Made by a program: the position numbers and the translations under genes
The notes under the pieces: model-generated
The model's database searches: none
The model's input: the letters and a program-made list of their open reading frames with translations, nothing else
Told to the model about the DNA's origin: nothing
DNA from: Rubrivivax sp.
Lineage (GTDB): Bacteria; Pseudomonadota; Gammaproteobacteria; Burkholderiales; Burkholderiaceae_C
Reading direction: 5' to 3'
Assembly: GCA_027491255.1 (NCBI GenBank)
Contig: JAIXWM010000122.1
Location: 1 to 64,000, forward strand
DNA length: 64,000 nucleotides
Part shown: piece by piece, positions 35,903 to 57,700 of the stretch
How positions within the stretch are numbered: the stretch's first letter is position 1
Layout: every line of letters begins with the position of its first letter

Positions 35903-35941
35903 GGAGGCCTCCGGTGTCTTGGGTGGAGCCGGGCCGGGTGT

Positions 35942-37735: not shown

Positions 37736-37751
37736 CGGCCAGCGGGCGTTT

Positions 37752-39641: not shown

Positions 39642-40126
39642 GCGGTGTTCTCCGTCGCGGTTGCGGCTGCGGTGGGGGCCTTGCGGCGGGGGCGGGTCCT
39701 GCCTCGGGCCTGGCTGAGGAGTTGCCTGCAGCGGGTTTCGTGCTGCCCGATCTCGGCCAGCGTCACCTCGAGGTCTTCGCGCTGCTGCTCCAGCAGCCGC
39801 CGGTGCTCGGCCAGCACGGCGAGGAAGGCCTGCAGTTGCGACACCGTGTCCGCAGGCGATTCGTACATGTCCACCAGCCCGCGGATCTCCAACAGGCTCA
39901 GCCCGAGACGCTTGCCGCGCAGTGTGAGCTTCAGGCGCGTGCGGTCGCGCTGCGTATACACACGGTTGCGCCCGGCGCGCGTGGGCTGCAGCAGTCCCAT
40001 CGCTTCATAGAAGCGGATCGCCCGCGGCGTGATGTCGAATTCCTGCGCGAGCTCGGTGATCGTCAAGGAGGCTGGCCGTTCGGGGCGCGGCGCGCGCGAA
40101 GGCGGTGGGAGGGCGTGGGCTGACAT
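39638..40126 (-). CDS. liuR: MerR-family regulator, LiuR-like
   Basis: A 162-residue MerR-family protein. The DNA-binding domain [36 protein letters not shown] lies at about 22-57, followed by a long coiled-coil dimer helix with [24 protein letters not shown]. No metal-binding cysteines are visible beyond one, so it is an organic-effector type. LiuR regulators of this family control branched-chain amino acid and acyl-CoA degradation in Proteobacteria and are usually placed next to ivd, as here (four-base overlap). The palindrome at 40135-40154 directly upstream is the obvious autoregulatory site. Confidence 0.88.
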
Positions 40127-40134
40127 CGTTAGAC

Positions 40135-40154
40135 TGACGTTGACGTCAACGTCA
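40135..40154. promoter_or_regulatory. LiuR-type operator at the liuR/MBL divergent promoter
   Basis: TGACGTTGACGTCAACGTCA is a perfect 20-base palindrome in the 45-base gap between liuR and the divergent metallo-hydrolase gene. The 16-base core 40140-40155 (TTGACGTCAACGTCAA) differs at one position from the palindrome before icmF at 54698-54713. The position between both start codons suits joint control of both directions. Confidence 0.75.
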
Positions 40155-40171
40155 ATGTAACGCGATCGGAC

Positions 40172-41245
40172 ATGAACCCACGCTCAGACAGCGCGCTGCG
40201 CTATCCCCTGGACGACGCGCTGCCGCCGGCGGGAGGCAGCCTGGAGGTCGCGCCTGGTGTGCGCTGGCTGCGCATGCCGCTGCCTTTCGTGCTCGACCAC
40301 ATCAACCTGTGGCTGCTGCGCGACGAGATCGACGGACACCTCGGCTGGACCCTGGTCGACTGCGGCGTCGACACCCCGCCCACGCGGGCCGTCTGGGAGC
40401 AGGTGTTCGCGCAGGAACTCCAGGGCCTGCCGGTGCTGCGCGTCGTCGTCACGCACATGCATCCGGACCACATCGGCCTCGCGCATTGGCTGACCGCCCG
40501 CTGGAGCGAGCCCGGGCGCGAATGCCGCCTGTGGATCAGCGCCGCCGACTGGAACGCGGCCTGCAACGCCAGCCGCGGCAGCACCGGCCCGGCAGGCGAG
40601 GAGGCCGCGGCGTTCTACGCGCTGCACGGGCTGGACGACCCTGCCGTGCTCCAGCGGGTGCGCAGCCACCGCAGCGACTACATGACCCTGGTGCCCGAGG
40701 TCCCGCCCCGCCACCGCCGTCTCATGGACGGGCAGTTGCTGCGCATCGGCGGGCACGACTGGACGTGCCTCGCAGGCTACGGCCACTCCCCCGAGCACAT
40801 CGCGCTGCACTGCCCGGCGCTGGACGTGCTGATCGCCGGCGACATGGTTCTGCCGCGGATCTCGACCAACATCAGCGTGTTCGGGCATGAGCCCGAGGGC
40901 GACCCGCTGACCTTGTACCTGGAGTCGTTGGCGCGCCTGCGCGCCTTGCCTGCCCACACCTTGGTGCTGCCCTCGCATGGCAAGCCCTTCACCGGTCTGC
41001 ACGAGCGCATTGCCCAATTGGAGACCCACCACGCGCAACGCCTGGCCGAGGTGGCCCGGTCCTGTGCCCAGGAGCCCCGCTCGGCCTTGGACCTGCTGCC
41101 GGCGATGTTCCGGCGCCCGCTGGATGCCACGCAGATTCCCTTCGCCCTTGGCGAGGCCGTGGCGCATCTGCACCGGCTGTGGGCGCAAGGACTGCTGAAG
41201 CCGCTGCGCGGCGCGGACGGCGTGCGGCGCTGGGTCGCCTGCTGA
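40172..41245 (+). CDS. Metallo-beta-lactamase-fold hydrolase
   Basis: A 357-residue MBL-fold protein. The binuclear metal motif HMHPDHIGLA (HxHxDH) is at about residue 98, the second-site His is in GYGHSPEHI, a bridging Asp is in IAGDMVLPRI and the final His is in LPSHGKPF. A C-terminal helical domain as in Lactb2/glyoxalase-II-like hydrolases follows. The substrate could be a thioester or lactone, which would fit control by the shared LiuR-type operator. It is divergent from liuR and starts 18 bases after the palindrome. Confidence 0.88.
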   Translation: MNPRSDSALRYPLDDALPPAGGSLEVAPGVRWLRMPLPFVLDHINLWLLRDEIDGHLGWTLVDCGVDTPPTRAVWEQVFAQELQGLPVLRVVVTHMHPDHIGLAHWLTARWSEPGRECRLWISAADWNAACNASRGSTGPAGEEAAAFYALHGLDDPAVLQRVRSHRSDYMTLVPEVPPRHRRLMDGQLLRIGGHDWTCLAGYGHSPEHIALHCPALDVLIAGDMVLPRISTNISVFGHEPEGDPLTLYLESLARLRALPAHTLVLPSHGKPFTGLHERIAQLETHHAQRLAEVARSCAQEPRSALDLLPAMFRRPLDATQIPFALGEAVAHLHRLWAQGLLKPLRGADGVRRWVAC

Positions 41246-41496
41246 TCCCGCCAGTCACCCGAGATTCGGCAGCGGGGCCCGCCCGGGCGGGCTGTCGTCG
41301 GCCGCGATGGCAAGGCGCGAACCGCAGCCATGGCCTGTGCCATGGCGAGGATACGCAACGCCGCCAGCGTGGTCGAGGGCAGCTCGATCGGGTGTGCAGC
41401 GCTTTCACCCTGCTGCTGAAGCCGGTCGTGGCCGGAATCTTCCGACCCGGCAAGCACTTGCTCGCGGAAGAAAGCGGTCAACTGCCGAATCCAGGG
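41246..41496. other. Gap without supported gene
   Basis: 251 bases between the convergent MBL-fold and YgjP-like genes. A reverse frame (ELPSTTLAALRILAMAQAMAAV) is open here but runs into the antisense of the MBL gene and has no known counterpart. I annotate nothing. Confidence 0.5.
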
Positions 41497-42504
41497 TCAC
41501 TCCAGCACGGGCAGCACCTCGTCGCGCAGCCGGCCGCGCGCGGCTTCCACGTCGGGCACGACGGAGCGTACGACGCTCCAGAAGGCCTCGGAGTGGTTCA
41601 TCTCGCGCAGGTGCGCGAGCTCATGCGCGACGACATAGTCGATCACCGGCAGCCCGAAGTGCACGAGGCGCCAGTTCAGCCGTATCGAGCCGTCGGCGCT
41701 GGCGCTGCCCCAGCGCGTGGAGGCCGAGCTCAGCGACAGGCGGCGCATGCGCACGCCCAGCCGGGGGGCGTAGATCGCGCAGCGTTCCTCGAAGATGCGC
41801 CGGGCCTGGCGCTGCAGCCAGCCCTGCACGGCGTCGCGCAGCCGAGCCGGTTCCGCCTCGTGGGGCAGGCCCACGTGGAGCGTCAGGCGCGGAACACCGG
41901 GCAGGGTGTCCTCGGCGCTGCGCAGCACGGCGCCGGCGCTGCGCGGATCGACGACGACGATCACGGTCTCGCCCAGAAAGGGAAGGGTCGTGCCGTCGCG
42001 CCACTCGATGCGTGCCCGCTCCAGGCGGCGCGCGCGCTCGCGCTGCTCCTGGAGCTTGCGCAGGATCCAGCGCCCCTTGGCCCGCAGCGCGGTGTCGATG
42101 TCGGTCACGCCCACCCAGCGCGGCGCGCTCACGCTCAGGCCGTCCGGGCCGACGACGAAGCCGATGCTGCGCCGGCGCGCACGCCGCAGTTCGAAGGCCA
42201 CGGCATGCCCCTCGAGCAGGACCTCGCGACTGGCGCGTGGGTGCTCGAAGCGCACCGCCGCGGCGGCGACGGCGGTGCGCGCCGGGGCGCATGCCGGCTG
42301 CGGCGGGTGGTGGTCGGCTGTACCGGGCCTGGGCGGGGCGGAGCTGCCCAGGCGCCGGTCGGCGGGCGGGCCATCGAACGCGGCTCCAACCGGCGCCGCC
42401 CGGTTCGCCCAGACGTCAGCGTGGGGGTCGTCGAACAAGGAAAGCTGCGTGGCTGCGCTTTCGCGCGGCTCCTGCGCGGCTGGAGGCCACCGGCTCGCGC
42501 CCAT
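41497..42504 (-). CDS. YgjP-like M48-type metallopeptidase domain protein (DUF45)
   Basis: A 335-residue protein whose C-terminal half matches the YgjP/DUF45 family: a beta-rich section, the segment RLSLSSASTRWGSASADGSIRLNWRL, then the zinc motif HELAH in DYVVAHELAHLREMNHS. The N-terminal ~90 residues are low-complexity and poorly conserved, so the exact start (ATG at 42504) is uncertain. Function in bacteria is not settled; a zinc-dependent protease is expected. It lies 14 bases after plsC. Confidence 0.85.
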   Translation of the reverse strand: MGASRWPPAAQEPRESAATQLSLFDDPHADVWANRAAPVGAAFDGPPADRRLGSSAPPRPGTADHHPPQPACAPARTAVAAAAVRFEHPRASREVLLEGHAVAFELRRARRRSIGFVVGPDGLSVSAPRWVGVTDIDTALRAKGRWILRKLQEQRERARRLERARIEWRDGTTLPFLGETVIVVVDPRSAGAVLRSAEDTLPGVPRLTLHVGLPHEAEPARLRDAVQGWLQRQARRIFEERCAIYAPRLGVRMRRLSLSSASTRWGSASADGSIRLNWRLVHFGLPVIDYVVAHELAHLREMNHSEAFWSVVRSVVPDVEAARGRLRDEVLPVLE

Positions 42505-42518
42505 GGACCGCGAACGTC

Positions 42519-43286
42519 CTACCTGCCGGGCGCCGCCGGGGCGTAGGCCTCGGGGTCGATGCGACGCATCTCCGCCTCGATCCAGGCCTCGACCTCGCGC
42601 ATCAGCTCGTCGGGCTGGCGCCCCGTGCTGTCGATCGGGCGGCCGATCGACACCGGCACCGTGCCAGGCCGCAGCAGGAAGCTCTTGCGCGGCCAGCAGC
42701 GGGCCGACGCCACGGCGATCGGTACGATCGGCACGCCAGCGGAGATGGCCAGGCGCGCTGCGCCGTTCTTGTAGGTGCCCTGGTCGCCGCGCGGGGTGCG
42801 CGTGCCTTCGGGGAACATGATGACCCACACGCCCTCGTCGAACAGCCGCCGGCCCTGCTCGGCGACCTTGGCCCAGGCCTCGGCGCGGCGGCTGCGGTCG
42901 ATGTGCACCATGTCCAGCCGCCCCATGGCCCAGCCGAAGAAGGGGACGCTCAGCAGCTCGCGCTTGAACACGTAGGCCAGCGGGTGCGGCATCAGTGTCG
43001 GGAAGAAGAAGGTCTCCCAGGTCGACTGGTGCTTCGGTGCCAGCAGCACCGCCGAGCGTGCCTGTGCCGAGGTGGGCAGATGCTCGAGCCCGCTGACCTG
43101 CGGCTGCACGCCGCAGAGCACGCGCGCCCCCCACATCGCCACGCGCAGCCAGCCTATCGTCGGCCAGTACAGCTTCTGCCCGCGCCAGAAAAGCGACAGC
43201 ACCAGCATGGCCACGGCCCAGGGCACGACCGTGACCGCCATCAGGCCGATGAACAGCATCGAGCGCAAGGCCCAGACGGCGCGCAT
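42519..43286 (-). CDS. plsC: 1-acyl-sn-glycerol-3-phosphate acyltransferase
   Basis: A 255-residue inner-membrane acyltransferase. N-terminal membrane segment, then catalytic motif I (NHxxxxD-type, here KHQSTWETF), motif II VHIDRSRR and motif III FPEGTRTPRG. It acylates lysophosphatidic acid to phosphatidic acid. In motif I the usual Asn is Lys and the acidic residue is Glu, as in many betaproteobacterial PlsC proteins. The ATG at 43286 overlaps the gmhB stop by one base, so the two are cotranslated. Confidence 0.93.
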   Translation of the reverse strand: MRAVWALRSMLFIGLMAVTVVPWAVAMLVLSLFWRGQKLYWPTIGWLRVAMWGARVLCGVQPQVSGLEHLPTSAQARSAVLLAPKHQSTWETFFFPTLMPHPLAYVFKRELLSVPFFGWAMGRLDMVHIDRSRRAEAWAKVAEQGRRLFDEGVWVIMFPEGTRTPRGDQGTYKNGAARLAISAGVPIVPIAVASARCWPRKSFLLRPGTVPVSIGRPIDSTGRQPDELMREVEAWIEAEMRRIDPEAYAPAAPGR

Positions 43287-43882
43287 CAGGATGGCTCCTG
43301 CGCCGTGGCGCCGGCGGCGCTGGCGCCGCGCGGGCTGCCGATCAGATGGTCGGCAAAGGCCGCCAGGTCGCGGTGCACGGTGGTCTCGGGTACCTGCTGC
43401 AGGATCTGCCGCAGGCCGTCCTCGTCCAGATCGGCGGCGCGGCCGCTGAGCACCAGGTGCGGCGGGCAGCCGGCGGCGCGCGCGGCCAGCAGGTCGCGCA
43501 GGGTGTCGGCGACCATCGGCACCCCGTGCAGGTCCATGCCGTAGCGCCGGCCGATGTCCAGCATCATTCCGGGCAGCGGCTTGCGGCACTCGCAGCGGTC
43601 CTCGGGGGTGTGAGGGCAGAAGAAGACGGCATCGATGCGCCCGCCGCTGCCCTGGGCCAGCCGCATCATCTGCTGGTGGATGGCATTGACCGAGGCCATG
43701 TCGATCATGCCGCGCCCGATGCCGGCCTGGTTGGTGGCCACCACCGCATGCCAGCCCGCATGGTTCAGGCGCGACAGCGCCTCGAGGGCGCCGCGGATCG
43801 GCACCCATTCCTCGGGGGACTTGACGTGGTCCTCGCGGTACTCGTTCAGGATGCCGTCACGGCCGAGGATAAGCAGCTTCAC
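43286..43882 (-). CDS. gmhB: GmhB-like HAD phosphatase with altered nucleophile
   Basis: A 198-residue HAD phosphatase matching D-glycero-beta-D-manno-heptose 1,7-bisphosphate 7-phosphatase of LPS heptose synthesis. VVATNQAGIGRG (motif II), the zinc loop CPHTPEDRCECRKP with motif III Lys, and VADTLRDLLAA (motif IV) are in place. But motif I reads LILGRDGILN where GmhB has LDRDGxIN: the nucleophilic Asp is Gly7 (codon GGC instead of GAC). As read, it should not form the phospho-aspartate intermediate. Either a sequencing error, a damaged gene or a protein with a new role. Start is GTG at 43882. Confidence 0.88.
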   Translation of the reverse strand: MKLLILGRDGILNEYREDHVKSPEEWVPIRGALEALSRLNHAGWHAVVATNQAGIGRGMIDMASVNAIHQQMMRLAQGSGGRIDAVFFCPHTPEDRCECRKPLPGMMLDIGRRYGMDLHGVPMVADTLRDLLAARAAGCPPHLVLSGRAADLDEDGLRQILQQVPETTVHRDLAAFADHLIGSPRGASAAGATAQEPS

Positions 43883-43922
43883 GGCAATGATTATCGTGGG
43901 CGCTGCGGTTCGGGGCGGCCCC

Positions 43923-46034
43923 TCATGCCGCCAGCCGTGCCAGGTCGGCCACGCGGTTCATGGCCCGGTGGAGTGCGCGCAGCAGTGCCAGACGATTGGC
44001 GCGCAGCGCCGGATCCTCGGCGTTCACCATCACGGCGTCGAAGAAGGCGTCCACCGGCGCCTTCAGCGCCGCCAGCGCCTGCAGCGATGCGGTCAGGTCG
44101 CCGGCTTCGAAGGCGGCTTCGGCGCGCGGTGCGACCGCATCCAGTGCGGCGGCCAGGGCCTGCTCGGCCGGCTCGACCAGGCGCGCCGGATCGATCTTGA
44201 CCTCGGGCGCGTCGTCGGACTTGCGCAGGATGTTGCCCACGCGCTTGTTGGCGGCGGCCAGCGCCGCCGCCTCCGGCAGCGTGGCAAAGGCGCGCACGGC
44301 AGCCAGGCGCTGCGGCAGCGCTGCCCACTGCGCGGGCTCGAGCGCGAGCACGGCGTCGACCTCCTGCGCGCTCCAGCCCTGTTCGCGCAGCCAGCCCGAC
44401 AGGCGCTCGTGCAGGAAGCGCAGCACTTCGGCCTGGGCCTGGCCATGGCCCTCGGGGAAGGCGCGGAAGGCCAGCCCCACGAGCTGCGGCACCGCCAGCC
44501 GCAGACGCCGCTCGACCAGCATCCGCACCACGCCCAGCGCGTGGCGCCGCAGCGCGAAGGGGTCCTTGTCCCCGGTGGGCAGCTGACCGATGCCGAACAG
44601 GCCGGCCAGCGTCTCGAGCTTGTCGGCCAGTGCCACCGCCAGGCCTGCATCGCCGCGCGGCAGCGCGTCGCCGGCGAAGCGCGGCTTGTAATGGTCTTCG
44701 ATCGCATCGGCGATCGCGTCTCGCAGGCCGTCGTGGCGGGCGTAGTAGGCCCCCATGATGCCCTGCAGCTCAGGGAACTCGCCGACCATGTCGGTCAGCA
44801 GGTCAGCCTTGGCCAGCGTCGCCGCCTCGTCCGCGAGGTCGGCCAGCGCGAGGCCACCGATCTGCTCGCCGATCTGGCGCGCGATCAGGCGCACGCGCTC
44901 GACACGCTCGCCCTGGGTCCCCAGCTTGCCGTGGTAGACGACCTTGGCCAGCCCGGGCACGCGCGAGGCCAGCGTGCGCTTGCGGTCCTGGTCGAAGAAG
45001 AACTTCGCGTCCGCCAGGCGCGGCCGCACGACGCGCTCGTTGCCGGTGATCACGCGCGACGGGTCGGCCGGACTGACGTTGCTGACGACGAGGAAGCGGT
45101 GCGTGAGCCGGCCGTCGGCGTCCAGCATCGGGAAGTACTTCTGGTTGGCCTTCATCGTCAGGATCAGGCATTCCTGGGGCACGGCGAGGAACTCGGGCTC
45201 GAAGGTGCAGCGCAGCACGTTCGGGCGCTCCACGAGCGCAGTCACCTCGTCCAGCAGCGCCTCGTCCTCCACCGGGCGCAGACCTTCGCCCGCCGCGGCC
45301 TCACGCAGCTGGCGGGCGATCTCGGCGCGCCTCGCAGCGAACGAGGCGATCACCGCGCCTTGTTCGCGCAGGCGCTGCTCGTAGCCGTCGGCGTCGTCGA
45401 TCACCACCGGGTCGACGGCGGCCTCGAAGCGGTGGCCGTGCGTCAGGCGGCCGGCGACGAGGCCCAATGCCGACACCGGCACCACTTCGCCGCCGTGCAA
45501 GGCCACGAGCGCATGCGCCGGGCGCACGAAGTTCACGCTCTTCCAGCCGTCGTCGAGCTGGTACTGCATCACCTTCGGGATGGGCAGCTTTGCCAGGGCC
45601 TCGTCGAGCGCACGCTGCAGCCCTGCGACCAGCGTTGCGCCAGGCTGCACGCTGTCGAGGAACAGTGCCTCGGCCTTGCCATCGACCGCGCGGCGCAGCC
45701 CGGCGGCTGCCGCGGCGTCGGCGCCGAGCGCTGCCAGCTTCTTGCGCAGCGCCGGCGTCGGCGCACCCGTGGCGTCCAGGCCCACGGCTACCGGCATCAG
45801 CTTGTGCGACATGGCCTTCGGCGGCGCGACGCCGCGCACGGCGCTGATCCGGGCGGCCAGGCGGCGCGGTGAGGCGTAGCTCGTCAGCGCCGCGCCTTCG
45901 GCCAACAGGCCCTGGGCGCGCAGCCCGTCGTGCAGCGATTGCCCGAAGGCCTCGCCCAGGCGCTTGAGCGCCTTGGGCGGCAGTTCCTCGACGAAGAGCT
46001 CGACCAGCAGGGCCGGGGTGTGGGTGGTGTCCAT
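43923..46034 (-). CDS. glyS: Glycyl-tRNA synthetase beta subunit
   Basis: A 703-residue beta chain of the alpha2-beta2 bacterial glycyl-tRNA synthetase. The start LLVELFVEELPPKALKRLGEAF is the family signature, and the HD-like middle section, including YYARHDGLRDAIADAI and KLETLAGLFGIGQLPTGDKDPFALRR, is clear. The C-terminal anticodon-binding-like region ends at 43923. It is coupled to glyQ with three bases between genes. Essential for protein synthesis. Confidence 0.97.
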   Translation of the reverse strand: MDTTHTPALLVELFVEELPPKALKRLGEAFGQSLHDGLRAQGLLAEGAALTSYASPRRLAARISAVRGVAPPKAMSHKLMPVAVGLDATGAPTPALRKKLAALGADAAAAAGLRRAVDGKAEALFLDSVQPGATLVAGLQRALDEALAKLPIPKVMQYQLDDGWKSVNFVRPAHALVALHGGEVVPVSALGLVAGRLTHGHRFEAAVDPVVIDDADGYEQRLREQGAVIASFAARRAEIARQLREAAAGEGLRPVEDEALLDEVTALVERPNVLRCTFEPEFLAVPQECLILTMKANQKYFPMLDADGRLTHRFLVVSNVSPADPSRVITGNERVVRPRLADAKFFFDQDRKRTLASRVPGLAKVVYHGKLGTQGERVERVRLIARQIGEQIGGLALADLADEAATLAKADLLTDMVGEFPELQGIMGAYYARHDGLRDAIADAIEDHYKPRFAGDALPRGDAGLAVALADKLETLAGLFGIGQLPTGDKDPFALRRHALGVVRMLVERRLRLAVPQLVGLAFRAFPEGHGQAQAEVLRFLHERLSGWLREQGWSAQEVDAVLALEPAQWAALPQRLAAVRAFATLPEAAALAAANKRVGNILRKSDDAPEVKIDPARLVEPAEQALAAALDAVAPRAEAAFEAGDLTASLQALAALKAPVDAFFDAVMVNAEDPALRANRLALLRALHRAMNRVADLARLAA

Positions 46035-46037
46035 CGT

Positions 46038-47003
46038 TCAGGCCTCCTGGCGCTGCGGAGCCTGGGCTGCGCGCTGGGCCAGCACCTCCTCGGCCCAGGC
46101 GCGCGGCGCCATCGGAAAGCCGAGCCGGGCACGGCTGTCGACATAGCTTTGCGCCACGGCGCGGGCCAGATGCCGGATGCGGCCGATGTAGGCGGCGCGC
46201 TCGGTCACGCTGATCGCGCCGCGCGCGTCCAGCAGGTTGAACGAGTGGGCGGCCTTCAGCACCTGCTCGTAGGCGGGCAGCGCGAGCTGCTGCGCGATCA
46301 GGTGCAGCGCCGTCTTCTCGTGCGCGCCGAAGGCTCCCAACAGGAAGTCCACGTCGCTGTGCTCGAAGTTGTAGGTGCTCTGCTCGACCTCGTTCTGGTG
46401 GTAGACGTCGCGGTAGTGAAGGCGACTCGAGGTCGCGCCGGGCGTCGCCGCAGCGCTTTCGGTCCAGACCAGGTCGTAGACGTTCTCCACGCCCTGGATG
46501 TACATCGCCAGGCGCTCCAGGCCGTAGGTGATCTCGCCGGTCACGGGCTTGCAGTCGATCCCGCCCACCTGCTGGAAATAGGTGAACTGGGTCACCTCCA
46601 TGCCGTTGAGCCAGACCTCCCAGCCCAGGCCCCAGGCCCCGAGCGTCGGGTTCTCCCAGTCGTCCTCGACGAAGCGGATGTCATTGCTCTGCAAGTCCAG
46701 CCCCAGGGCCTGCAGAGAGCCGAGGTAGAGCTCGAGGATGTTCTTCGGCGCCGGCTTGAGCACCACCTGGTACTGGTAGTAATGCTGCAGGCGGTTCGGG
46801 TTGTCGCCGTAGCGGCCGTCCTTGGGGCGCCGGCTGGGCTGCACGTAGGCGGCCTTCCAGGGCTCGGGCCCGAGGGCGCGCAGGAAGGTCGCGGTATGGC
46901 TGGTGCCGGCACCGACCTCCATGTCGTAGGGTTGCAGGAGCGCGCAGCCCTGCGCGTCCCAGTAGGACTGCAGGTTCAGGATCATCTGCTGGAAGGTCAG
47001 CAT
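46038..47003 (-). CDS. glyQ: Glycyl-tRNA synthetase alpha subunit
   Basis: A 321-residue class II synthetase catalytic chain. [33 protein letters not shown] opens the protein, the class II motif appears in [33 protein letters not shown], and [17 protein letters not shown] is motif 3. Start at the ATG 47003; a longer reading frame upstream belongs to the antisense and frame-shifted copy of lnt. It activates glycine and works with the beta subunit. Confidence 0.97.
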
Positions 47004-47074
47004 GGCAGTGGCCGGCGACGGCCCCCGATCTGGGAAAACCCGAAAGTTTACGGGGGCGGGCCGTGCAGGCCGGT

Positions 47075-48697
47075 TCAGGGGGCGTGGCTGCGGCGGCGCG
47101 CGCAGGCGGCGACCAGCGCGAGCGCCAAGGCAAACAGGGGCCACAAGCCCCAGCGCCCGGCCCAGGCGGCGTAGGGCGTCGTGCCGATGCGGCCCTCGAA
47201 CTCCCCGTCGAGCAGGCCGCGCTGGCGCGGCTCGAGCCGGTGCGTGACCAGGCCGCGATGGTCGACGATCGCCGTCGAGCCGGTGTTGGTCGCGCGCAGC
47301 ATGGGCCGCTGCAGTTCGAGCGCGCGCAGGCGCGAGATGTTCAAGTGCTGCGGTATGGCCACCGTGTCGCCGAACCAGCCGATGTTGCTGAGGTTGACGA
47401 GCACCGTCGGGGCCTGGGCGGCGTCGACGAAGCGCACGGCGAGCTCCTCGCCGAACAGGTCCTCGTAGCAGATGTTGGGAGCCAGGCGTTGCCCGCCCAC
47501 GGCCAGCGAGGGCGCGTTCACCGGGCCGCGGTCGAAGTCGCCAAGGGGGATCTGCATCAGTTCGGTGAACCAGCGAAAGCCCCACGGTATGAACTCGCCG
47601 AAGGGCACGAGATGGGCCTTGTCGTAGCGATAGGCCTGCGCCTGGCCCGGCAGCAGCCCGACCGCCGAATTGGTGTAGCCGGTCTCGAAGCTGCCCAGCG
47701 GCATGCCGATGAGTGCGGCCTGGGTGGACTTCTGGAAGTGCTGCGCCAGCGTCTGCCACCAATCTGGGGCGATCGCGGCGAGTTGCGTGGGCAGCAGTGG
47801 AAGGGCGGTTTCCGGGGCGACCACGAGCTGCCCGCGCGCCTGCGTGAGGGCATCACCCAACCAGGCAAGGTGTTGCGGCAGGCGCTCACCCGAGAACTTC
47901 TCGTCCTGCGCCACCCGTGGCTGCAGCAGGGTCACCGACATCCGGCCCGCCGTCTGCGTGAATTCCAGCGGGCGCAGCAGGGCGGGCGCCAGCAGCAGCG
48001 CCAGGCCTGCGGCGACGGACAGGGCGCGGGGGCCATGCGCAAGCGCACGCTGCCTGCGCGTGCCGTCACCTGGTCCTGTGCCCGGCGGCGCCCCGGTCGG
48101 CACGGCGCCGAACACGGCCAGCGAGGCGGCAAAGGCCAGCACCGCACCCATTCCATACACGCCGATCCAGGGCGCGAGCCCCGCCAGCGGTGCGTCGACC
48201 TGGGTGTAGCCGCTGGCGGCCCAGGGAAAGCCTGTGAACAGCGCGCCGCGGGCCCACTCCGCCAGCAGCCACAGCGCCGCAAACAGCCCGGCGTCGCGCA
48301 AGGGCTGGCCGCTGCGCCAGCGTGCCCAGGCGGCGCAGGCCAGCGCCAGGTAGCACGACAGCGCCGCGGCCAGGGCCAGCACGGCCAGCGCCGCCATCCA
48401 AGCCGGCAGCCCACCGTAGCGGTGCATGCTGATGTGCAGCCACCACACGGCGGCGAGCAGCCAGGCGGTGCCGAAGACGCCGCCGAGCCAGGCCGCGCGC
48501 CCGACGCCGGCCTGCCGCAGCCGCCAGCCGAGCACGCCCACGGCCAGCGGCGCCGCCGCCCAGGCCTCGGTGTAGGTGCAGGCCAGCGGCAGCGCCGCGC
48601 CTGCAGTTGCGACGGTCAAGGTGTCGAGCGCGGCCCTGCCCGCCCGCGGGCCGCGCGCCTCGTCCACCGCGTGTTCCGGGGTGTCGGGCCCGTGCAC
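47075..48697 (-). CDS. lnt: Apolipoprotein N-acyltransferase
   Basis: A 540-residue inner-membrane enzyme that adds the third acyl chain to lipoproteins. About eight membrane spans surround a periplasmic nitrilase domain with the Glu-Lys-Cys triad: Glu in [11 protein letters not shown], Lys in [11 protein letters not shown] and Cys in [10 protein letters not shown]. Start GTG at 48697 follows the corC stop immediately. The corC-lnt pairing is common in Gram-negative bacteria. It should serve the three lipoproteins in this window (LolB, the hydrolase, the patatin). Confidence 0.95.
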
Positions 48698-49603
48698 TCA
48701 GCCCGCCGCCTCGAGGGCGGCTGCGTCATCGAGGGGCGCGCGCGCGACGCGGAACCATCGCACGGCGCCGCCCCGGGTCAGCATCACGGTGAAGCGCAGG
48801 CCCGCCAGGTCCACCGCCTCGCCCCGGCGGGGCACCCTGCCCAGCCGATCGGCCACCAGGCCGCCGATGGTGTCGAAGTCCTCCTGAGGCAGTTCCACAG
48901 CGAAGGTGTCGTTGACGACCCGCACCTGCGCATCGCCAGCCACGCGGTGGCTGCCATCGGCCAGCGAGACGATGCCGCTGTCGGCGTCGCGCTCGTCGAA
49001 CTCGTCCTCGATCTCGCCGACGATCTCCTCGAGCACGTCCTCGATCGTGATCAGCCCGGCGGTGTTGCCGAACTCGTCGATCACGATCGCGAGGTGATTG
49101 CGATTCGAGCGGAAGTCGCGCAACAACTCGTTCAGGCCCTTGCTCTCGGGGACGAAGACCGCGGGCCGCAGCAGCGTGCGCAGGTTCAGCTCGGGCGCGC
49201 GCTGCAGCTTCAGCAGGTCCTTGGCGAGCAGGATGCCGATGATGTTGTCGCGCTCGCCGTCGTGCACCGGGAAGCGCGAATGCCCGGTGTCGATGACCAG
49301 GGCGAGCAGTTCGTCGTAGGGAGCGTTGATGTCCAGCAGGTCCATGCGCGGCGCGGCGACCATGACGTCGCCGGCCGTCATGTCGGCCATGCGGATCACG
49401 CCCTCGAGCATGGCACGCGATTCGGGCCCGATCAGCTCGCGCTGCTCGGCGTCGGCCAGCGATTCGATCAGCTCGTCGCGGGAGTCGGGGCCTGGGGAGA
49501 TGAATTCGACCAGCCGCTCGAAGAGGGTGCGCTTGTCGAGAGGCTTGTCGGCACCGCGCGCGGTCGGATGGCGCGGTGCCTTGGCTGGCGGAGTTTCTGA
49601 CAC
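48698..49603 (-). CDS. corC: CorC/HlyC-family CBS-domain protein
   Basis: A 301-residue cytoplasmic protein. A CBS pair covers about residues 65-190 (MTAGDVMVAAPRMDLLDINA; DEFGNTAGLITIEDVLEEIVGEIEDEFDE) and a C-terminal CorC_HlyC transporter-associated domain follows (about 210-285). It lacks the DUF21 membrane domain of full-size relatives. E. coli CorC is linked to magnesium/cobalt efflux, but a role with lnt in envelope stress is also discussed. Start GTG at 49603 chosen because upstream residues are not conserved-looking. Confidence 0.9.
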   Translation of the reverse strand: MSETPPAKAPRHPTARGADKPLDKRTLFERLVEFISPGPDSRDELIESLADAEQRELIGPESRAMLEGVIRMADMTAGDVMVAAPRMDLLDINAPYDELLALVIDTGHSRFPVHDGERDNIIGILLAKDLLKLQRAPELNLRTLLRPAVFVPESKGLNELLRDFRSNRNHLAIVIDEFGNTAGLITIEDVLEEIVGEIEDEFDERDADSGIVSLADGSHRVAGDAQVRVVNDTFAVELPQEDFDTIGGLVADRLGRVPRRGEAVDLAGLRFTVMLTRGGAVRWFRVARAPLDDAAALEAAG

Positions 49604-49758
49604 GATCGTGCCGGAAGTGACGACAGGCAGGAGAATACCGCAGCGCCAGTCGCGCGGTGCCGCAAAGCGGACCGCCGGCTGAGCGGGCGGCTTGAATTCC
49701 GCCCGCGTGCACTGCAACTCAGCCCCACACCATTCAGCGCCCGAACGCGCCCCACGCC

Positions 49759-50805
49759 ATGTCCCTCATCCCTGTCACCATCCTCACCGGTTTCCTCGGC
49801 GCCGGAAAGACGACGCTGCTCAAGCGCGTGCTGACCGAGGCCCACGGCCAGAAGATCGCCGTGATCGAGAACGAATTCGGCGCGGAGAACATCGACAACG
49901 ACATCCTGTCGGTGAGCACCGAGGAGCAGATCATCCAGATGAGCAACGGCTGCGTGTGCTGCACGATCCGCGAGGACCTGCGCACCACGCTGGCCGAACT
50001 GGCGGAGAAGCGGCGCAAGGGCGAACTGCACTTCGAGCGTGTCGTCATCGAGACCACGGGCCTGGCCGACCCCGGGCCGGTGGCCCAGACCTTCTTCATG
50101 GACGACGAGGTGGCGGGCAGCTTCCTGCTCGACTCCATCCTGACCCTGGTCGATGCCAAGCACGCCGACCAGCAACTTGACACGCGCCAGGAGGCGCGCC
50201 GGCAGGTGGGCTTCGCCGACCAGATCTTCATCAGCAAGACCGACCTCGTGCCCCCGGGCGCGGTCGACGCCTTGGTTCACCGCCTCAAGCACATGAACCC
50301 GCGCGCGCCGCACCGCGCGGTGCACTTCGGTGAGGTGTCGATCGCGGAGGTGTTCGACCTGCGCGGCTTCAATCTGAATGCCAAGCTCGACATCGACCCC
50401 GATTTCCTCAATGCCGACGACGGCCACGGCCACGATCATGGGCACGACCATGACCATGACCATGAGCACGGCGAGCATTGCGATCATCCCCATCACCACC
50501 GCCACGACGACGACGTCAAGTCCTTCGTCTACCGCGCCGACCGGGCCTTCCATCCGGCCAAGCTCGAGGATTTCCTCGGCGCCGTGGTCCAGGTCTACGG
50601 CCCGAAGATGCTGCGCTACAAGGGTGTGCTGCACATGAAAGGCAGCGACCGCAAGGTCGTCTTCCAGGGCGTGCACCAGTTGATGGGCAGCGACCTCGGC
50701 CCGAAATGGGCGCCCGGCGAGAAGAAGGAAAGCCGCATGGTCTTCATCGGCATCGACCTCCCGCGCGAGGTGCTGGAGCAGGGCCTGGAGCAGTGCCTCG
50801 TCTGA
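49759..50805 (+). CDS. CobW-type G3E GTPase (zinc chaperone class)
   Basis: A 348-residue G3E GTPase. P-loop GFLGAGKTT at 11-19, metal-binding GCVCC at 64-68, guanine motif SKTD, and a His/Asp-rich loop at about 220-252 (HGHDHGHDHDHDHEHGEHCD split by other residues). A C-terminal CobW_C domain (FVYRADRAFHPAKLEDFL) follows. The His loop and position before dksA suit the zinc-chaperone subgroup (ZNG1/ZigA/YjiA) rather than true CobW. No Zur-like palindrome was found upstream. Confidence 0.92.
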   Translation: MSLIPVTILTGFLGAGKTTLLKRVLTEAHGQKIAVIENEFGAENIDNDILSVSTEEQIIQMSNGCVCCTIREDLRTTLAELAEKRRKGELHFERVVIETTGLADPGPVAQTFFMDDEVAGSFLLDSILTLVDAKHADQQLDTRQEARRQVGFADQIFISKTDLVPPGAVDALVHRLKHMNPRAPHRAVHFGEVSIAEVFDLRGFNLNAKLDIDPDFLNADDGHGHDHGHDHDHDHEHGEHCDHPHHHRHDDDVKSFVYRADRAFHPAKLEDFLGAVVQVYGPKMLRYKGVLHMKGSDRKVVFQGVHQLMGSDLGPKWAPGEKKESRMVFIGIDLPREVLEQGLEQCLV

Positions 50806-50988
50806 GGGCATATCCGTTTGCAGAGCTCTTCGGCGCCGCGGTGTCGGCGCTGAATGCAGGCGGCGTGCCGCCGTGGCTACAATCCGCGCGCTTCGGCAGG
50901 GGGGGCGGCTTTGGTCGCGGGTCTCCTGGCCGAGCCCGGCATGCACCCGCAGGATCCCGGCACAAGGACCCCAGGCCAGGAGAGACCC

Positions 50989-51630
50989 GTGAGCAAGACC
51001 CCTGCCAAGCCGGCTGCAGCCCCCAAGGCGGTCAGCGCCAAGACGGGCGGCAAGCCGGAACCCGTCAAGTCCGTGGCACCGGCGCCCACACACTCATTTG
51101 CTGATCGTTTCGGACCGGTGCGTGCGCCGGCCCGGGCTCACCCTGAACCGATGGAACCTGTGAAGACTCCGGTCAAGTCCGACCCCAAGCTGGCCAACGC
51201 CTGGAAGACCAAGGCGGGCCGCGACCTGACCGAGGACGAGCTCCTGGCGATGCCCGAGTCGGAGTACATGAACGACAAGCAACTGGAGTTCTTCCGCGCC
51301 CGCCTGCAGGGCCAGAAGGATGACCTGCTGTCCAACGCCGGCGAGACCACCGAGCATCTGCGCGAGGACACGACCATCGTGCCCGACCCGGCCGACCGCG
51401 CCACGATCGAGGAGGAGCACGCCCTGGAGTTGCGCACCCGCGACCGCGAGCGCAAGCTGCTGAAGAAGATCAGCCAGGCCCTGGCCCTGCTGGACACCGG
51501 CGAGTACGGGTACTGCGACGAGACCGGCGAGCCCATCGGACTGCCGCGCCTGCTGGCGCGTCCGACGGCGACGCTGTCCCTGGAGGCGCAGCAGCGGCGC
51601 GAACTCAAGCAGAAGATGTTCGGCGATTGA
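50989..51630 (+). CDS. dksA: DksA-type RNA polymerase secondary-channel regulator
   Basis: A 213-residue DksA protein. GTG at 50989 has AGGAG six bases upstream. An Ala/Pro/Lys-rich N-terminal tail precedes the coiled coil (MNDKQLEFFRARLQGQKDDLL) and the tip with conserved acidic residues (ADRATIEEEHALELRTRDRERK). The zinc-finger region reads GYGYCDETGEPIGLPRLLARPTATLSLEAQ: of the four cysteines of E. coli DksA only the first remains, so zinc binding is unlikely. It works with ppGpp on ribosomal and amino-acid promoters. It follows a zinc-chaperone-type GTPase gene. Confidence 0.92.
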   Translation: MSKTPAKPAAAPKAVSAKTGGKPEPVKSVAPAPTHSFADRFGPVRAPARAHPEPMEPVKTPVKSDPKLANAWKTKAGRDLTEDELLAMPESEYMNDKQLEFFRARLQGQKDDLLSNAGETTEHLREDTTIVPDPADRATIEEEHALELRTRDRERKLLKKISQALALLDTGEYGYCDETGEPIGLPRLLARPTATLSLEAQQRRELKQKMFGD

Positions 51631-51637
51631 CGGCCAT

Positions 51638-51652
51638 GGCGGTGGAACCGCC
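51638..51652 (+). terminator. Possible weak terminator after dksA
   Basis: GGCGGT-GGA-ACCGCC hairpin eight bases after the dksA stop, not followed by a T tract. It may be a pause or processing hairpin only. Confidence 0.3.
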
Positions 51653-51875
51653 GCCTTGCTTGCCGGTCAAGGTCCACGGGGCCCCTTCTGCGCGTCGAAA
51701 TGTCGCTGACGGGTGGTTGGTGGGTGCGGCTCCTCGGGCATGCCGACCTCGCCCTGGGTTTGCGTGTATCGCGCTTGGCGCGCCGGCGGCTTCGGCAAGT
51801 CAACGACCGTGCGGCCGACCGCGAGCCAGACCGGCCGGACGAGCCCCTTTTCCTGCAGCCTGAGGGCCACCCTGC

Positions 51876-52411
51876 ATGAACGACAGTTTTCACGGCACGA
51901 CCATCCTCAGCGTGCGTCGCGGCGCGCGCGTGGCCATGGGCGGTGACGGCCAGGTCACGCTCGGCAACATCGTTGTCAAGGCGAGCGCGCGCAAGGTGCG
52001 CAAGCTCCACCGCGACCAGGTGCTCGCCGGGTTCGCCGGTGCCACGGCCGATGCCTTCACGCTGTTCGAGCGTTTCGAGGCCAAGCTCGAAAAGCACCAG
52101 GGCCACCTGGTGCGCGCGGCGGTCGAACTGACCAAGGACTGGCGCACCGACCGCGTTTTGCGTCGGCTCGAAGCCATGCTCGCCGTGGCCGACCGGGAGA
52201 GCTCGCTCATCATCACCGGCAACGGCGACGTGCTCGAGCCCGAGCGCGGCATCGTGGCCATTGGCTCGGGCGGTGCCTACGCCCAGGCGGCGGCGATGGC
52301 GCTGATGGAGCACACCGAGCTCGCCCCGTCCGAGGTGGTGGCCAAGGCGCTGTCGATCGCCGGCGAGCTGTGCATCTACACCAATCAACGCCACACGATC
52401 GAGGTGCTCGA

Positions 52412-52415
<4 letters not shown>
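51876..52415 (+). CDS. hslV: ATP-dependent protease subunit HslV
   Basis: A 179-residue proteasome-like peptidase. Short leader MNDSFHG precedes the catalytic Thr8 ([21 protein letters not shown]), which becomes the N-terminus of the mature enzyme. The C-terminal section [18 protein letters not shown] is typical. It forms two stacked hexamers that degrade proteins fed by HslU. The stop overlaps the hslU start. No convincing heat-shock (sigma-32) promoter was seen in the 244 bases upstream. Confidence 0.96.
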
Positions 52416-53746
<1,331 letters not shown>

Positions 53747-53798
53747 AGGCTGAGAGGCTTCCCCTCGTGGTTGCCGTGCGCGCGCAGACTCCCCGCCT

Positions 53799-54566
53799 TC
53801 AGCCGCCCGCACGCTCGGCTTGCAGCACCAGCAGGCCGTCGAAGATCAGCGCGTCGACGAGCTCATGCGGAACGTCGAGATAGGGTGAGACCTTCCAGCC
53901 CGCGCCGCCGGTCATGAGGGTGTGCGGCGGTCGGCCGCAGTGCGCGCTCAGGCGCCGGTGCATGCGCTCGATCGCACCGGTGATCGCGTAGGTGCCGCCG
54001 CTGGTCAGCGCGTCACTCGTGTTCTTCGGAAAGTCGACGACCTCGCCCGTGGGTACGCGCAGGCCGGCGGTGCCGCCTTCGAGCGCGCGCAGCATGATGC
54101 CGTGTCCGGGCAGGATCAGGCCGCCGAGGAAGTGGCCGTCGGCGTCCATCGCGTCCACAGTGACAGCAGTGCCGATCATGACGACCAGCACCGGCCCCGA
54201 TTCGCCGCGCGCGACGCAGCGCCAGCGTGCACCGACCTGGGCCACGAAGCGGTCGGTGCCGAGCCGCCCCGGATGGTCGTAGCCGTTGATGACGCCACCG
54301 CCCTTCGGGCCCGAGGCCACCCAGCGACCGGGAATGTCCCACAGTTCGAGTTGTTCCTCGACCCGCTTGCGCACCGCATCGCCGGCGACGTTGCAGCCCA
54401 GCATGCCCTCGGGCACTGGAAGGTTGCGCCAGTCGCCCTCGGCCAGGGTGTCGATGTGCTCCAGGAAGACCGCGCCCTGGGCCAGCAGCCGCGCTGCCGG
54501 CCGGCCGGAGTCGAACACGGCCCACTTCAGCCGCGTGTTGCCGATGTCGATTGCCAGAAAACCCAT
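53799..54566 (-). CDS. coaX: Type III pantothenate kinase
   Basis: A 255-residue pantothenate kinase, first step of coenzyme A synthesis. N-terminal [17 protein letters not shown] (phosphate motif of the ASKHA fold), [29 protein letters not shown] with the catalytic Asp, and MTGGAGWKV near the end. Start ATG at 54566. Usually next to birA, but here it stands between hslU (convergent) and icmF (divergent). A second coenzyme A gene, coaD, lies 4 kb away. Confidence 0.95.
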
Positions 54567-54697
54567 GGACCGCGCCCTCGCCACTCCCCCTGACCGCAGC
54601 CCTGCATCCTAACCACTGGAGCCCGGGTCTTGCGCCGCCCTGAGGGTTTGCCCGCCGCCTGGCAAGCTCGTGTCAGGCGGAGATGGCATCATTGCAA

Positions 54698-54713
54698 TTG
54701 ACGTTAACGTCAA
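54698..54713. promoter_or_regulatory. LiuR-type operator before icmF
   Basis: TTGACGTTAACGTCAA, a perfect 16-base palindrome, ends 14 bases before the icmF ATG. It matches 15 of 16 bases of the core at the liuR-ivd promoter (40140-40155). A second gene controlled by the same MerR-type regulator is the simplest reading. Confidence 0.75.
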
Positions 54714-54727
54714 CCGGGAACCTGCAA

Positions 54728-57700
54728 ATGACCGATCTCTCCGCCGAATTCAAGGCCCTGGCCGAGTACCGGCCCGTCAACAAGGTGCGCTTCGTGACGG
54801 CGGCCAGTCTCTTCGACGGGCACGACGCGGCCATCAACATCATGCGTCGCATCCTCCAGGGCATGGGCGCGGAGGTCATCCACCTCGGGCACAACCGCTC
54901 TGTCGACGAGGTCGTCACTGCGGCGCTGCAGGAAGACGCGCAGGGCATCGCGGTCAGCAGCTACCAGGGCGGGCACGTCGAGTACTTCAAGTACATGGTG
55001 GACCTGCTGCGCGAGCGCGGCGGGCCCGACGTGCAGGTCTTCGGCGGCGGCGGTGGCGTCATCGTCCCGGCGGAGATCCGCGAACTCCAGGGCTACGGTG
55101 TCGCGCGCATCTACAGCCCCGAGGACGGGCAGCGCATGGGGCTGCAGGGCATGATCGGCGAGATGCTGATGCGCTGCGATCGCGACCTGTCGGTGCAGGC
55201 GCCCCGTGACGTGGCTGCGCTGCAGGGGCACACCGGGACGGCCTGGCGCGCGTTGGCGCAGGCGATCACGGCGCTGGAGAACGGGCGCGCCGATCCGGCC
55301 TTCAAGAGCGCGCTGCACGCCCAGGCGGCGCAGGCGCGCGTGCCCGTGGTGGGCATCACCGGCACGGGCGGGGCGGGCAAGTCCAGCCTGACGGACGAAC
55401 TCATCCGCCGCCTGCGCCTGGACCAGGGCGACGCGCTGCGGCTGGCGGTGATCTCGATCGACCCGAGCCGGCGCAAGAGCGGCGGCGCTCTGCTGGGCGA
55501 CCGCATCCGCATGAACGCCATCGGCGAATGGTCTGCCTCGAGGCTCGCGCTTGCGCAGAGTTCGCCATCCGCCGAGTCGGATGACGCCGCCTTGGGGCGG
55601 CCTGGCGGTCGCGGAGGGCAGGGCGCGCGCGTCTTCATGCGCAGTCTGGCCACACGCGACTTCGGCAGCGAGATCAGCCAGGCGCTGCCCGACGTGATCG
55701 CGGCGTGCAAGTGCGCCGGCTTCGACCTCATCGTCGTCGAGACCTCCGGCATCGGCCAGGGTGACGCCGCGATCGTGCCACTGGTGGACGTGCCGGTGTA
55801 CGTGATGACGCCGGAGTTCGGCGCCGCGAGCCAGCTCGAGAAGATCGACATGCTGGACTTCGCCGAGTTCGTGGCGATCAACAAGTTCGACCGCAAGGGC
55901 GCGCTGGACGCGCTGCGCGACGTGGCCAAGCAGGTGCAGCGCAACCGCGAGGCCTGGGGGAAGCGGGCCGAGGAGATGCCGGTCTTCGGCACCATGGCCA
56001 GCCGCTTCAATGACGATGGGGTGACGGCGCTGTACCAGGCGATCTTGCCGCGTCTGGGAGAACTCGGGCTGCGGCTCATGCCGGGCCGGCTGGCACCGAT
56101 GTCCACGCGCCACAGCACGCAGCAGGTGGCCATCGTTCCCGGGGCGCGGGTGCGTTACCTGGCCGACGTCGCCGACACCGTGCGCGGCTACAAGCGGCGC
56201 GCGCGCGAGCAGGCGGCGCTGGCCCGTGAGGTGCAGCAATTGAGGGCTGCGGCGGGCATGCTGGCGGCCAGCAAGCCCGACAAGCCGCGAGCCGCCGATG
56301 CCGCGCTGACCCTGGCCGATGAGCGCGAAGCCCGGCTCGATGCGCGCGCGCGCAATCTTTTGGCCCAGTGGCCCGAGACGGTCCGCACCTACGCCGGCGA
56401 CGAGTACGTGGTGAAGGTCCGGGACCGCGAGATCCGCACCGCGCTCACCCACACCACGCTGTCGGGCAGCAGGATCCGCAAGGTCGCGCTGCCCGCCTGG
56501 GAATGCCACGGCGAACTGCTGAAGTGGCTGCTGCTCGAGAACGTGCCCGGCTCCTTCCCCTACACCGCCGGCACCTTCGCCTTCAAGCGCGAGGGCGAGG
56601 ACCCGACGCGCATGTTCGCCGGCGAGGGCGATGCCTTCCGGACGAACCGTCGCTTCAAGCTGTTGTCCGAGGGCATGCCGGCCAAGCGGCTGTCCACCGC
56701 CTTCGACTCGGTCACGCTGTACGGACACGACCCCGACCTGCGCCCGGACATCTACGGCAAGGTGGGCAACTCTGGCGTGTCGATCGCGACGCTGGACGAC
56801 ATGAAGGTGCTGTACTCGGGATTCGACCTGACGAACCCGACGACCTCGGTCAGCATGACGATCAACGGGCCGGCGCCGTCGATCCTGGCGATGTTCATGA
56901 ACACCGCGATCGACCAGAACCTGGAGAAGTTCCGCGCCGACAACGGCCGCGTGCCCACCGACGACGAGGCGCACAAGATCCGCGCCTGGACGCTGGCCAA
57001 CGTGCGCGGCACGGTGCAGGCCGACATCCTGAAGGAGGACCAGGGCCAGAACACCTGCATCTTCTCCACCGAGTTCAGCCTGAAGGTGATGGGCGACATC
57101 GCCGAGTACTTCGTGCAGCACGACGTACGCAACTTCTACTCGGTCAGCATCTCGGGCTATCACATCGCCGAGGCTGGAGCCAACCCGATCAGTCAGCTCG
57201 CCTTCACGCTGTCCAACGGCTTCACCTTCGTCGAGGCCTACCTCGCGCGCGGGATGCACATCGACGACTTCGCGCCCAACCTGAGCTACTTCTTCAGCAA
57301 CGGCATGGACCCGGAGTACACGGTGCTCGGGCGCGTCGCGCGCCGCATCTGGGCGGTGGCGATGCGCGAGCGCTACGGCGCCAACGAGCGCAGCCAGAAG
57401 CTGAAGTACCACATCCAGACCAGCGGCCGCAGCCTGCACGCGCAGGAGATCGCCTTCAACGACATCCGCACCACGTTGCAGGCGCTGATCGCGATCTACG
57501 ACAACTGCAACAGCCTGCACACCAACGCCTACGACGAGGCCATCACCACGCCCACCGAGGAGAGCGTGCGCCGCGCCATGGCGATCCAGCTGATCATCAA
57601 CCGCGAGTGGGGCCTGGCGAAGAACGAGAACCCGAACCAGGGCGCCTTCATCATCGACGAGCTGACCGAGCTGGTCGAGGAGGCGGTGCTGGCCGAGTTC

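What the first reader, a model, noticed from the sequence alone, without database searches (positions are those of the whole stretch)
40135..54713. Shared 16-base palindrome links liuR-ivd and icmF in one regulon
TTGACGTCAACGTCAA (40140-40155) lies at the liuR/ivd and MBL-hydrolase divergent promoter, and TTGACGTTAACGTCAA (54698-54713) lies 14 bases before icmF. Fifteen of 16 bases agree, both lie just upstream of start codons, and such sites are absent elsewhere as far as I could see. Known: LiuR (MerR family) controls branched-chain degradation, and IcmF can interconvert isovaleryl- and pivalyl-CoA. Isovaleryl-CoA is the substrate of Ivd. Joint control of Ivd and IcmF around isovaleryl-CoA, with the MBL hydrolase as a third member, would be a coherent regulon.
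Basis: partly seen in the sequence, partly recalled or inferred. Interest (0 to 1): 0.75.

Follow-up and report, generated by a model that had tools for sequence, protein, structure and literature searches.

The report
Leucine-breakdown regulator also controls icmF
A DNA switch that bacteria appear to use to control leucine breakdown also sits in front of the gene for a vitamin B12 enzyme, IcmF, in many related bacteria, which suggests that this enzyme works in branched-chain amino acid breakdown.

Summary
In detail: both sites are real, near-identical and far beyond chance. In the 6.5 Mb genome the motif TTKACGTNNACGTMAA occurs exactly four times (about 0.008 expected): between liuR-ivd and the MBL hydrolase, and upstream of icmF, liuB and etfBA. 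"Absent elsewhere" therefore holds for the window only, and the regulon is larger than proposed.

Relatives support the icmF link. In the window's genus icmF has the operator in 18 of 19 genomes with the MerR regulator and 3 of 15 without it; in those 3, ivd is cut by a contig end or not found, so an assembly gap is likely. Seven genomes that keep ivd and icmF but lack the regulator have no operator at either, while the icmF -10-like element remains. The icmF operator also occurs in Cupriavidus (22 of 29) and in 36 of 74 named icmF loci.

Best reading: icmF is a LiuR target, probably repressed through an operator at the transcription start. The isovaleryl/pivalyl-CoA rationale is untested; isobutyryl- to n-butyryl-CoA is at least as likely. 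There are no binding or expression data.

The parts
39638..40126 (-). MerR-family regulator, 162 aa (P0001), here called LiuR from its context
   Evidence: Pfam MerR_1 and MerR-DNA-bind over cut-off; NCBIfam hits are all MerR-family but none over cut-off; only one other, 30% identical match in the own genome
38463..39641 (-). ivd, isovaleryl-CoA dehydrogenase, 392 aa (P0002); its start overlaps the end of liuR
   Evidence: Best five solved relatives are isovaleryl-CoA dehydrogenases (513-591 bits; next 306 bits); no NCBIfam model over cut-off
34724..38441 (-). Downstream genes on the same strand: carbonic anhydrase (37752-38441), aceK (35942-37735), thiolase (34724-35902); possible operon with liuR-ivd
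   Evidence: Pfam, NCBIfam; operon membership inferred from order and strand
40134..40155 (.). Operator between liuR and the MBL gene: two overlapping 16-mers containing the perfect palindrome 40135-40154
40172..41245 (+). MBL-fold hydrolase, 357 aa (P0003), divergent from liuR
   Evidence: Pfam Lactamase_B and B_lactamase-like_C; best solved relatives are titled only beta-lactamase domain protein or Zn-dependent hydrolase
54684..54692 (+). TGGCATCAT, -10-like element of icmF, 5 bases before the operator
   Evidence: TGGCAT[CG]AT in 20 of 21 genus promoters with the operator and 11 of 13 without; the sigma-70 consensus scan finds nothing here
54698..54713 (.). Operator of icmF, perfect 16-bp palindrome
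   Evidence: conserved in relatives
54728..58105 (+). icmF, fused isobutyryl-CoA mutase/GTPase

Best explanation
The palindromes are operators of the MerR-family regulator encoded at 39638-40126, a LiuR-type regulator of branched-chain amino acid catabolism, and icmF belongs to its regulon together with liuR-ivd, the MBL hydrolase, the liuB operon and etfBA. Shown by sequence: the four exact motif places, their rarity, their conservation and their co-occurrence with the regulator gene. Inferred: a LiuR dimer sits over the start of transcription (operator overlapping or up to 12 bases after the -10-like element) and blocks RNA polymerase until a product of Leu/Val/Ile breakdown releases it. Inferred too: IcmF then moves branched acyl-CoA, most likely isobutyryl-CoA from valine, into the straight-chain n-butyryl-CoA pool. 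The inducer is unknown.
For: Own genome: four exact TTKACGTNNACGTMAA places in 6.5 Mb, about 0.008 expected from base composition, next to liuR-ivd/MBL, icmF, liuB and etfBA. P0001 has no close paralogue there. Genus g1: icmF operator (up to 1 mismatch) in 18 of 19 genomes with the regulator and 3 of 15 without, Fisher p 9e-6. Of the 3 exceptions, G011 and G035 have ivd cut by a contig end and in G015 no ivd was found. Counting as regulator-less only genomes whose ivd is found with its flank: 0 of 7 (p 1.2e-5). Around ivd (1.5 kb each side) a site is found in 15 of 17 genomes with the regulator and 0 of 8 without (a ninth, G035, is truncated and also has none). Sister comparisons on an icmF+ivd tree with the 3 exceptions set aside: about 3 of 3 pairs on supported branches and 9 of 9 on the best tree go the same way. 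Wider: 36 of 74 named icmF loci have the operator; 33 of 44 genomes with the regulator, 0 of 6 without. Cupriavidus: 22 of 29 at icmF, 30 of 30 regulator loci. Reversed-pattern control in these stretches: 0.
Against: No binding, expression or inducer data. No call compared P0001 with a published LiuR; the name rests on context. G020 has the regulator but no icmF operator at 2 mismatches at either icmF copy; 11 of 44 named genomes with the regulator lack one, as do 7 of 29 Cupriavidus and the order-level relative G059. G007 and G032 have the regulator but no site within 1.5 kb of ivd; their site is beside liuR. With all rows kept, the supported-branch sister test shows nothing (about 2 same, 1 opposite, 1 no difference); with exceptions removed p is 0.25; the tree is poorly resolved. 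The sigma-70 consensus scan finds no promoter at either place, so the -10 elements rest on conservation and reading by eye. In Cupriavidus the operator lies upstream of the -10, with candidate -35s at 15 and 19 bp, so the blocking model need not hold everywhere.
Confidence: 0.88

Rival explanations
1. The link is LiuR control, and its point is isovaleryl-CoA to pivalyl-CoA interconversion.
For: IcmF is reported to act on pivalyl- and isovaleryl-CoA too (PMC10481361 passage); the own-genome targets include the leucine genes ivd and liuB.
Against: The same passage names isobutyryl/n-butyryl-CoA first. That the isovaleryl activity is much weaker is recalled (Cracan and Banerjee 2012, not held). 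The protein is an ordinary IcmF. mmsA, part of the usual valine route, is present, so the genome decides neither way.
Confidence: 0.2
2. Another transcription factor binds the shared palindromes, and LiuR is only a neighbour.
For: The core is simple and palindromic. Many relatives carry a second MerR protein (39-48% identical to P0001) and similar sites were seen near its gene in the three loci read.
Against: The own genome lacks that second protein. Operators at ivd and icmF are missing where the LiuR-type gene is missing, also in G019, G029 and G033, which still carry the second protein.
Confidence: 0.07
3. Chance similarity of two palindromes.
For: At 1 mismatch some genomes have as many matches to the reversed control as to the motif (for example G023, 5 against 7), so weak matches alone mean little.
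Against: Four exact places against about 0.008 expected, three of them at genes of acyl-CoA or leucine metabolism besides icmF; conservation at icmF with 0 control hits in the promoter stretches.
Confidence: 0.01

Closest known systems
[quoted passage not shown]
   Same: MerR-family regulator next to ivd, with sites at liu and ivd genes. PMC3223726 (passages) calls LiuR a MerR-family repressor with predicted targets ldh, liu, ivd, bkd, gltBD, thrABC and aceBA in Shewanella.
   Different: Here the sites also lie at icmF, etfBA and an MBL hydrolase. icmF is not named in the passages seen of PMC3223726 and PMC5343134. Kazakov 2009 is not held and the regulon tables were not read.
ILV box / LiuR in Rhodospirillum rubrum (PMC7238569, passages)
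   Same: The passages suggest that the LiuR-controlled Leu/Ile/Val degradation regulon takes part in butyrate assimilation, so butyrate and branched-chain metabolism are linked.
   Different: That paper thinks an isobutyryl-CoA mutase unlikely in R. rubrum; in the window's lineage icmF itself carries the operator.
IcmF of Cupriavidus metallidurans (PDB 4xc6; PMC10481361, passages)
   Same: Same fused mutase/GTPase; icmF promoters in the genus of Cupriavidus sp. LEh25 carry the same operator in 22 of 29.
   Different: In Cupriavidus the operator lies upstream of the -10, in the window's genus downstream of the -10-like element.

Membership tests
LiuR regulon | MerR-family regulator | tested here: met
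   Pfam MerR_1 and MerR-DNA-bind over cut-off
LiuR regulon | Regulator gene near ivd, with operators at liu and ivd promoters | tested here: met
   Own genome; a site in 24 of 25 regulator loci of relatives and 30 of 30 in Cupriavidus; around ivd 15 of 17 with the regulator
LiuR regulon | Operator matches the published LiuR motif | not testable with these tools
   Motif paper not held; similarity is recalled only
LiuR regulon | Sequence relationship of P0001 to a characterised LiuR | not tested
   No reference sequence was fetched
LiuR regulon | Binding and Leu/Ile/Val-dependent expression | not testable with these tools
   Needs experiments
IcmF | Fused B12-binding, GTPase and mutase domains, over family cut-off | tested here: met
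   NF045497 1916.7 bits, cut-off 1500; 4xc6 alignment
IcmF | Isobutyryl-CoA mutase activity | not testable with these tools
   Needs an enzyme assay
Isovaleryl-CoA dehydrogenase | Closer to proven IVDs than to other acyl-CoA dehydrogenases | tested here: met
   NCBIfam gave no model over cut-off

The most novel reading that the evidence does not exclude
icmF is a widely conserved target of the LiuR regulon in Betaproteobacteria and some Gammaproteobacteria. IcmF's natural job would then lie in branched-chain amino acid catabolism, moving branched acyl-CoA into the straight-chain pool; the operator at icmF disappears repeatedly together with the regulator while the core promoter stays.
Probability: 0.6. 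Interest if true: 0.6.

Novelty: new member of a known kind. Interest (0 to 1): 0.45.

Why it matters
IcmF is studied as a structure and as a model of B12 delivery (PMC10481361, passages), but its physiological context is less clear (recalled). A conserved LiuR-type operator gives it one and makes it testable in a laboratory Cupriavidus strain. It would extend a known regulon by a B12 enzyme, an electron carrier (etfBA) and an uncharacterised MBL hydrolase, whose function could be guessed from its company.

Tried and rejected
Chance: rejected. RNA element or riboswitch: Rfam at gathering thresholds finds only one tRNA in the window. Sigma-70 consensus scan: nothing at either place, so promoter elements were read from conservation. 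Genome-wide counts of 1-mismatch sites as evidence: rejected, since the reversed control is similar in some genomes (whose list of places was also cut) and gives 4 against 9 in the own genome. IcmF as a replacement for the usual valine route: not supported, since mmsA is in the own genome; 48 of 61 genomes searched, own included, exceed the family cut-off. Trees: icmF start alone poorly resolved, icmF+ivd little better, rerun without the three likely assembly-gap genomes. A MerR-type 19-bp spacer at Cupriavidus icmF was considered; candidate -35s at 15 and 19 bp score about equally (mean 3.57 and 3.81 of 6, 21 promoters), so it is left open.

Literature: no paper in the held library holds both 'LiuR' and 'icmF' (0 papers); one holds 'LiuR' and 'isobutyryl-CoA mutase', PMC7238569. 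Wider searches were seen as listings only, mostly in part. Kazakov 2009 and three IcmF papers are not held.

Rows dropped or assigned by hand: of 80 named icmF loci, 6 lacked a usable start or 200 bp before the anchor (one of them, L049, showed a 1-mismatch site). Upstream stretches were the 300 bp before the codon of P0004 residue 34, so they include some coding sequence. Of 37 genus genomes, G004 and G013 had no icmF match and G001 no N-terminal part, leaving 34. Order-level relatives are outside the genus counts: site in G038 and G056, none in G046, G047, G052, G059. In the 50-genome count G061 (43% identical match) is counted as without and G069 (fragment) as with the regulator. L081 and G012 appear to be the same genome, so the named and genus sets overlap by one.
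Full report
1. Observation. The window has 7 strand-matches at up to 3 mismatches against 0.37 expected, none of 100 shuffles reaching 7; six of the seven are these two places. The first site is two overlapping 16-mers, 40134-40149 and 40140-40155, inside a perfect 20-bp palindrome (40135-40154). The second is a perfect palindrome.

2. Whole genome. G000 (6.5 Mb, 202 contigs) holds exactly four exact matches to TTKACGTNNACGTMAA, against about 0.008 expected from the window's base composition: window 40140, window 54698, C34:37928 and C54:69002. The C34 site precedes a carboxyltransferase gene (liuB; Pfam Carboxyl_trans), followed by a VapB/VapC pair, an enoyl-CoA hydratase and an HMG-CoA-lyase-like gene; the stretch between the last two was not resolved. 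The C54 site precedes etfB-etfA, an acyl-CoA dehydrogenase and a nitronate-monooxygenase-like gene. Five more places match with one mismatch, one of them the overlapping 40134 site; the reversed control gives 4 at the same stringency, so the other four are probably chance.

3. Genes. P0001 (39638-40126) is a MerR-family protein, with no NCBIfam model over cut-off and one other match in the genome, 30% identical at E 9e-5. P0002 is isovaleryl-CoA dehydrogenase: its five best solved relatives are IVD sequences at 513-591 bits, the next is at 306. P0004 is IcmF (1916.7 bits, cut-off 1500; PDB 4xc6). P0003 is an MBL-fold hydrolase. The name LiuR rests on context; no published LiuR sequence was compared.

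4. Relatives in the same genus. Of 37 genus genomes (G000-G036), 20 have a regulator orthologue (E below 1e-50) and 17 do not. The stretch before icmF could be examined in 34. The operator (up to 1 mismatch, in the 300 bp before the codon of P0004 residue 34) is present in 18 of 19 with the regulator and 3 of 15 without (Fisher p 9e-6). The miss with a regulator is G020. The three hits without one are G011, G015 and G035: in G011 and G035 the ivd gene is cut by a contig end, and in G015 no ivd was found, so the regulator next to it may be unassembled. Counting as regulator-less only genomes whose ivd is found with its flank gives 0 of 7 (p 1.2e-5). Within 1.5 kb of ivd a site is found in 15 of 17 genomes with the regulator (not in G007 and G032, where ivd lies apart from the operator) and in 0 of 8 without (G035, truncated, also has none). 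In G018 and G025 ivd and an MBL gene face each other with the regulator gone (read by eye).

5. Phylogeny. Related genomes are not independent. On an icmF+ivd tree the regulator changes 11 times and the site 10 times. With all rows kept, supported branches give 4 sister pairs, about 2 the same way, 1 opposite and 1 without difference: no significance. With G011, G015 and G035 set aside, about 3 of 3 supported pairs go the same way (sign test p 0.25), and on the best tree regardless of support 9 of 9 in 298 of 300 random pairings. This favours repeated joint loss but rests on a poorly resolved tree and on that exclusion.

6. Wider range. Of 80 named icmF loci, 74 could be examined; 36 have the operator, by record title in Comamonadaceae, Sphaerotilaceae, Oxalobacteraceae, Burkholderiaceae, Rhodocyclales, Methylophilaceae, some Gammaproteobacteria and one record titled Rhodospirillales. 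For 50 of them the genome was searched for the regulator: 33 of 44 with it have the icmF operator, 0 of 6 without (p 8e-4). In the genus of Cupriavidus sp. LEh25, 22 of 29 icmF promoters and 30 of 30 regulator loci have sites. Reversed-pattern controls in these stretches gave 0 hits.

7. Promoter anatomy. In the window's genus a -10-like TGGCAT[CG]AT lies 4-12 bases before the icmF operator in 20 of 21 promoters with it, and remains in 11 of 13 without it. In the own genome the liuB (TACAAT), etfB (TAGAAT) and MBL (TAGACT) operators also overlap or closely follow -10-like hexamers (read by eye). This fits repression by blocking the start. In 21 of the 22 Cupriavidus icmF promoters with the operator a TATAAT or TACAAT follows it instead. 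The sigma-70 consensus scan found no promoter at either window place.

8. Mechanism. Shown: the motif, its rarity, its conservation and its co-occurrence with the regulator. Inferred: binding by P0001, repression, release by a branched-chain catabolite, and IcmF's role. [quoted passage not shown] PMC7238569 (passages) suggests that the LiuR regulon takes part in butyrate assimilation in Rhodospirillum rubrum, where an isobutyryl-CoA mutase is thought unlikely.

9. Novelty. A new target of a known kind of regulon. No paper in the held library contains both 'LiuR' and 'icmF', and the only one with 'LiuR' and 'isobutyryl-CoA mutase' is PMC7238569. The main source on LiuR regulons (Kazakov 2009) is not held, so the link may already be listed there under another gene name.

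Noticed in passing
L018:11964-12711 (G000:C34); also L219 and L217: A VapB/VapC-type toxin-antitoxin pair lies inside the liu operon after liuB (Pfam). Similar small genes follow liuB in G014 and G036 but not in G007 or G032 (ORFs read by eye).
   Followed up: partly
L218, L220, L221 (relatives G036, G014, G012): A second MerR protein (41-43% identical to P0001) sits by short-chain-dehydrogenase-like and carboxyltransferase-like ORFs (by eye) with a GTGACGTTAACGTCAA site. The own genome lacks it.
   Followed up: partly
window 35942-37735: aceK (isocitrate dehydrogenase kinase/phosphatase) lies downstream of liuR-ivd (Pfam), and aceK-like ORF starts follow ivd in several relatives (by eye), hinting that leucine breakdown and the glyoxylate shunt are controlled together.
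   Followed up: no
L268-L296 against L134-L208: The icmF operator lies upstream of a TATAAT-like -10 in Cupriavidus but downstream of the -10-like element in the window's genus, so the same operator may act differently in the two lineages.
   Followed up: partly
window 49759-50805: A CobW-like P-loop GTPase gene (named by eye from its start) lies near icmF; a similar ORF follows the MBL gene in relative G039 (L262).
   Followed up: no
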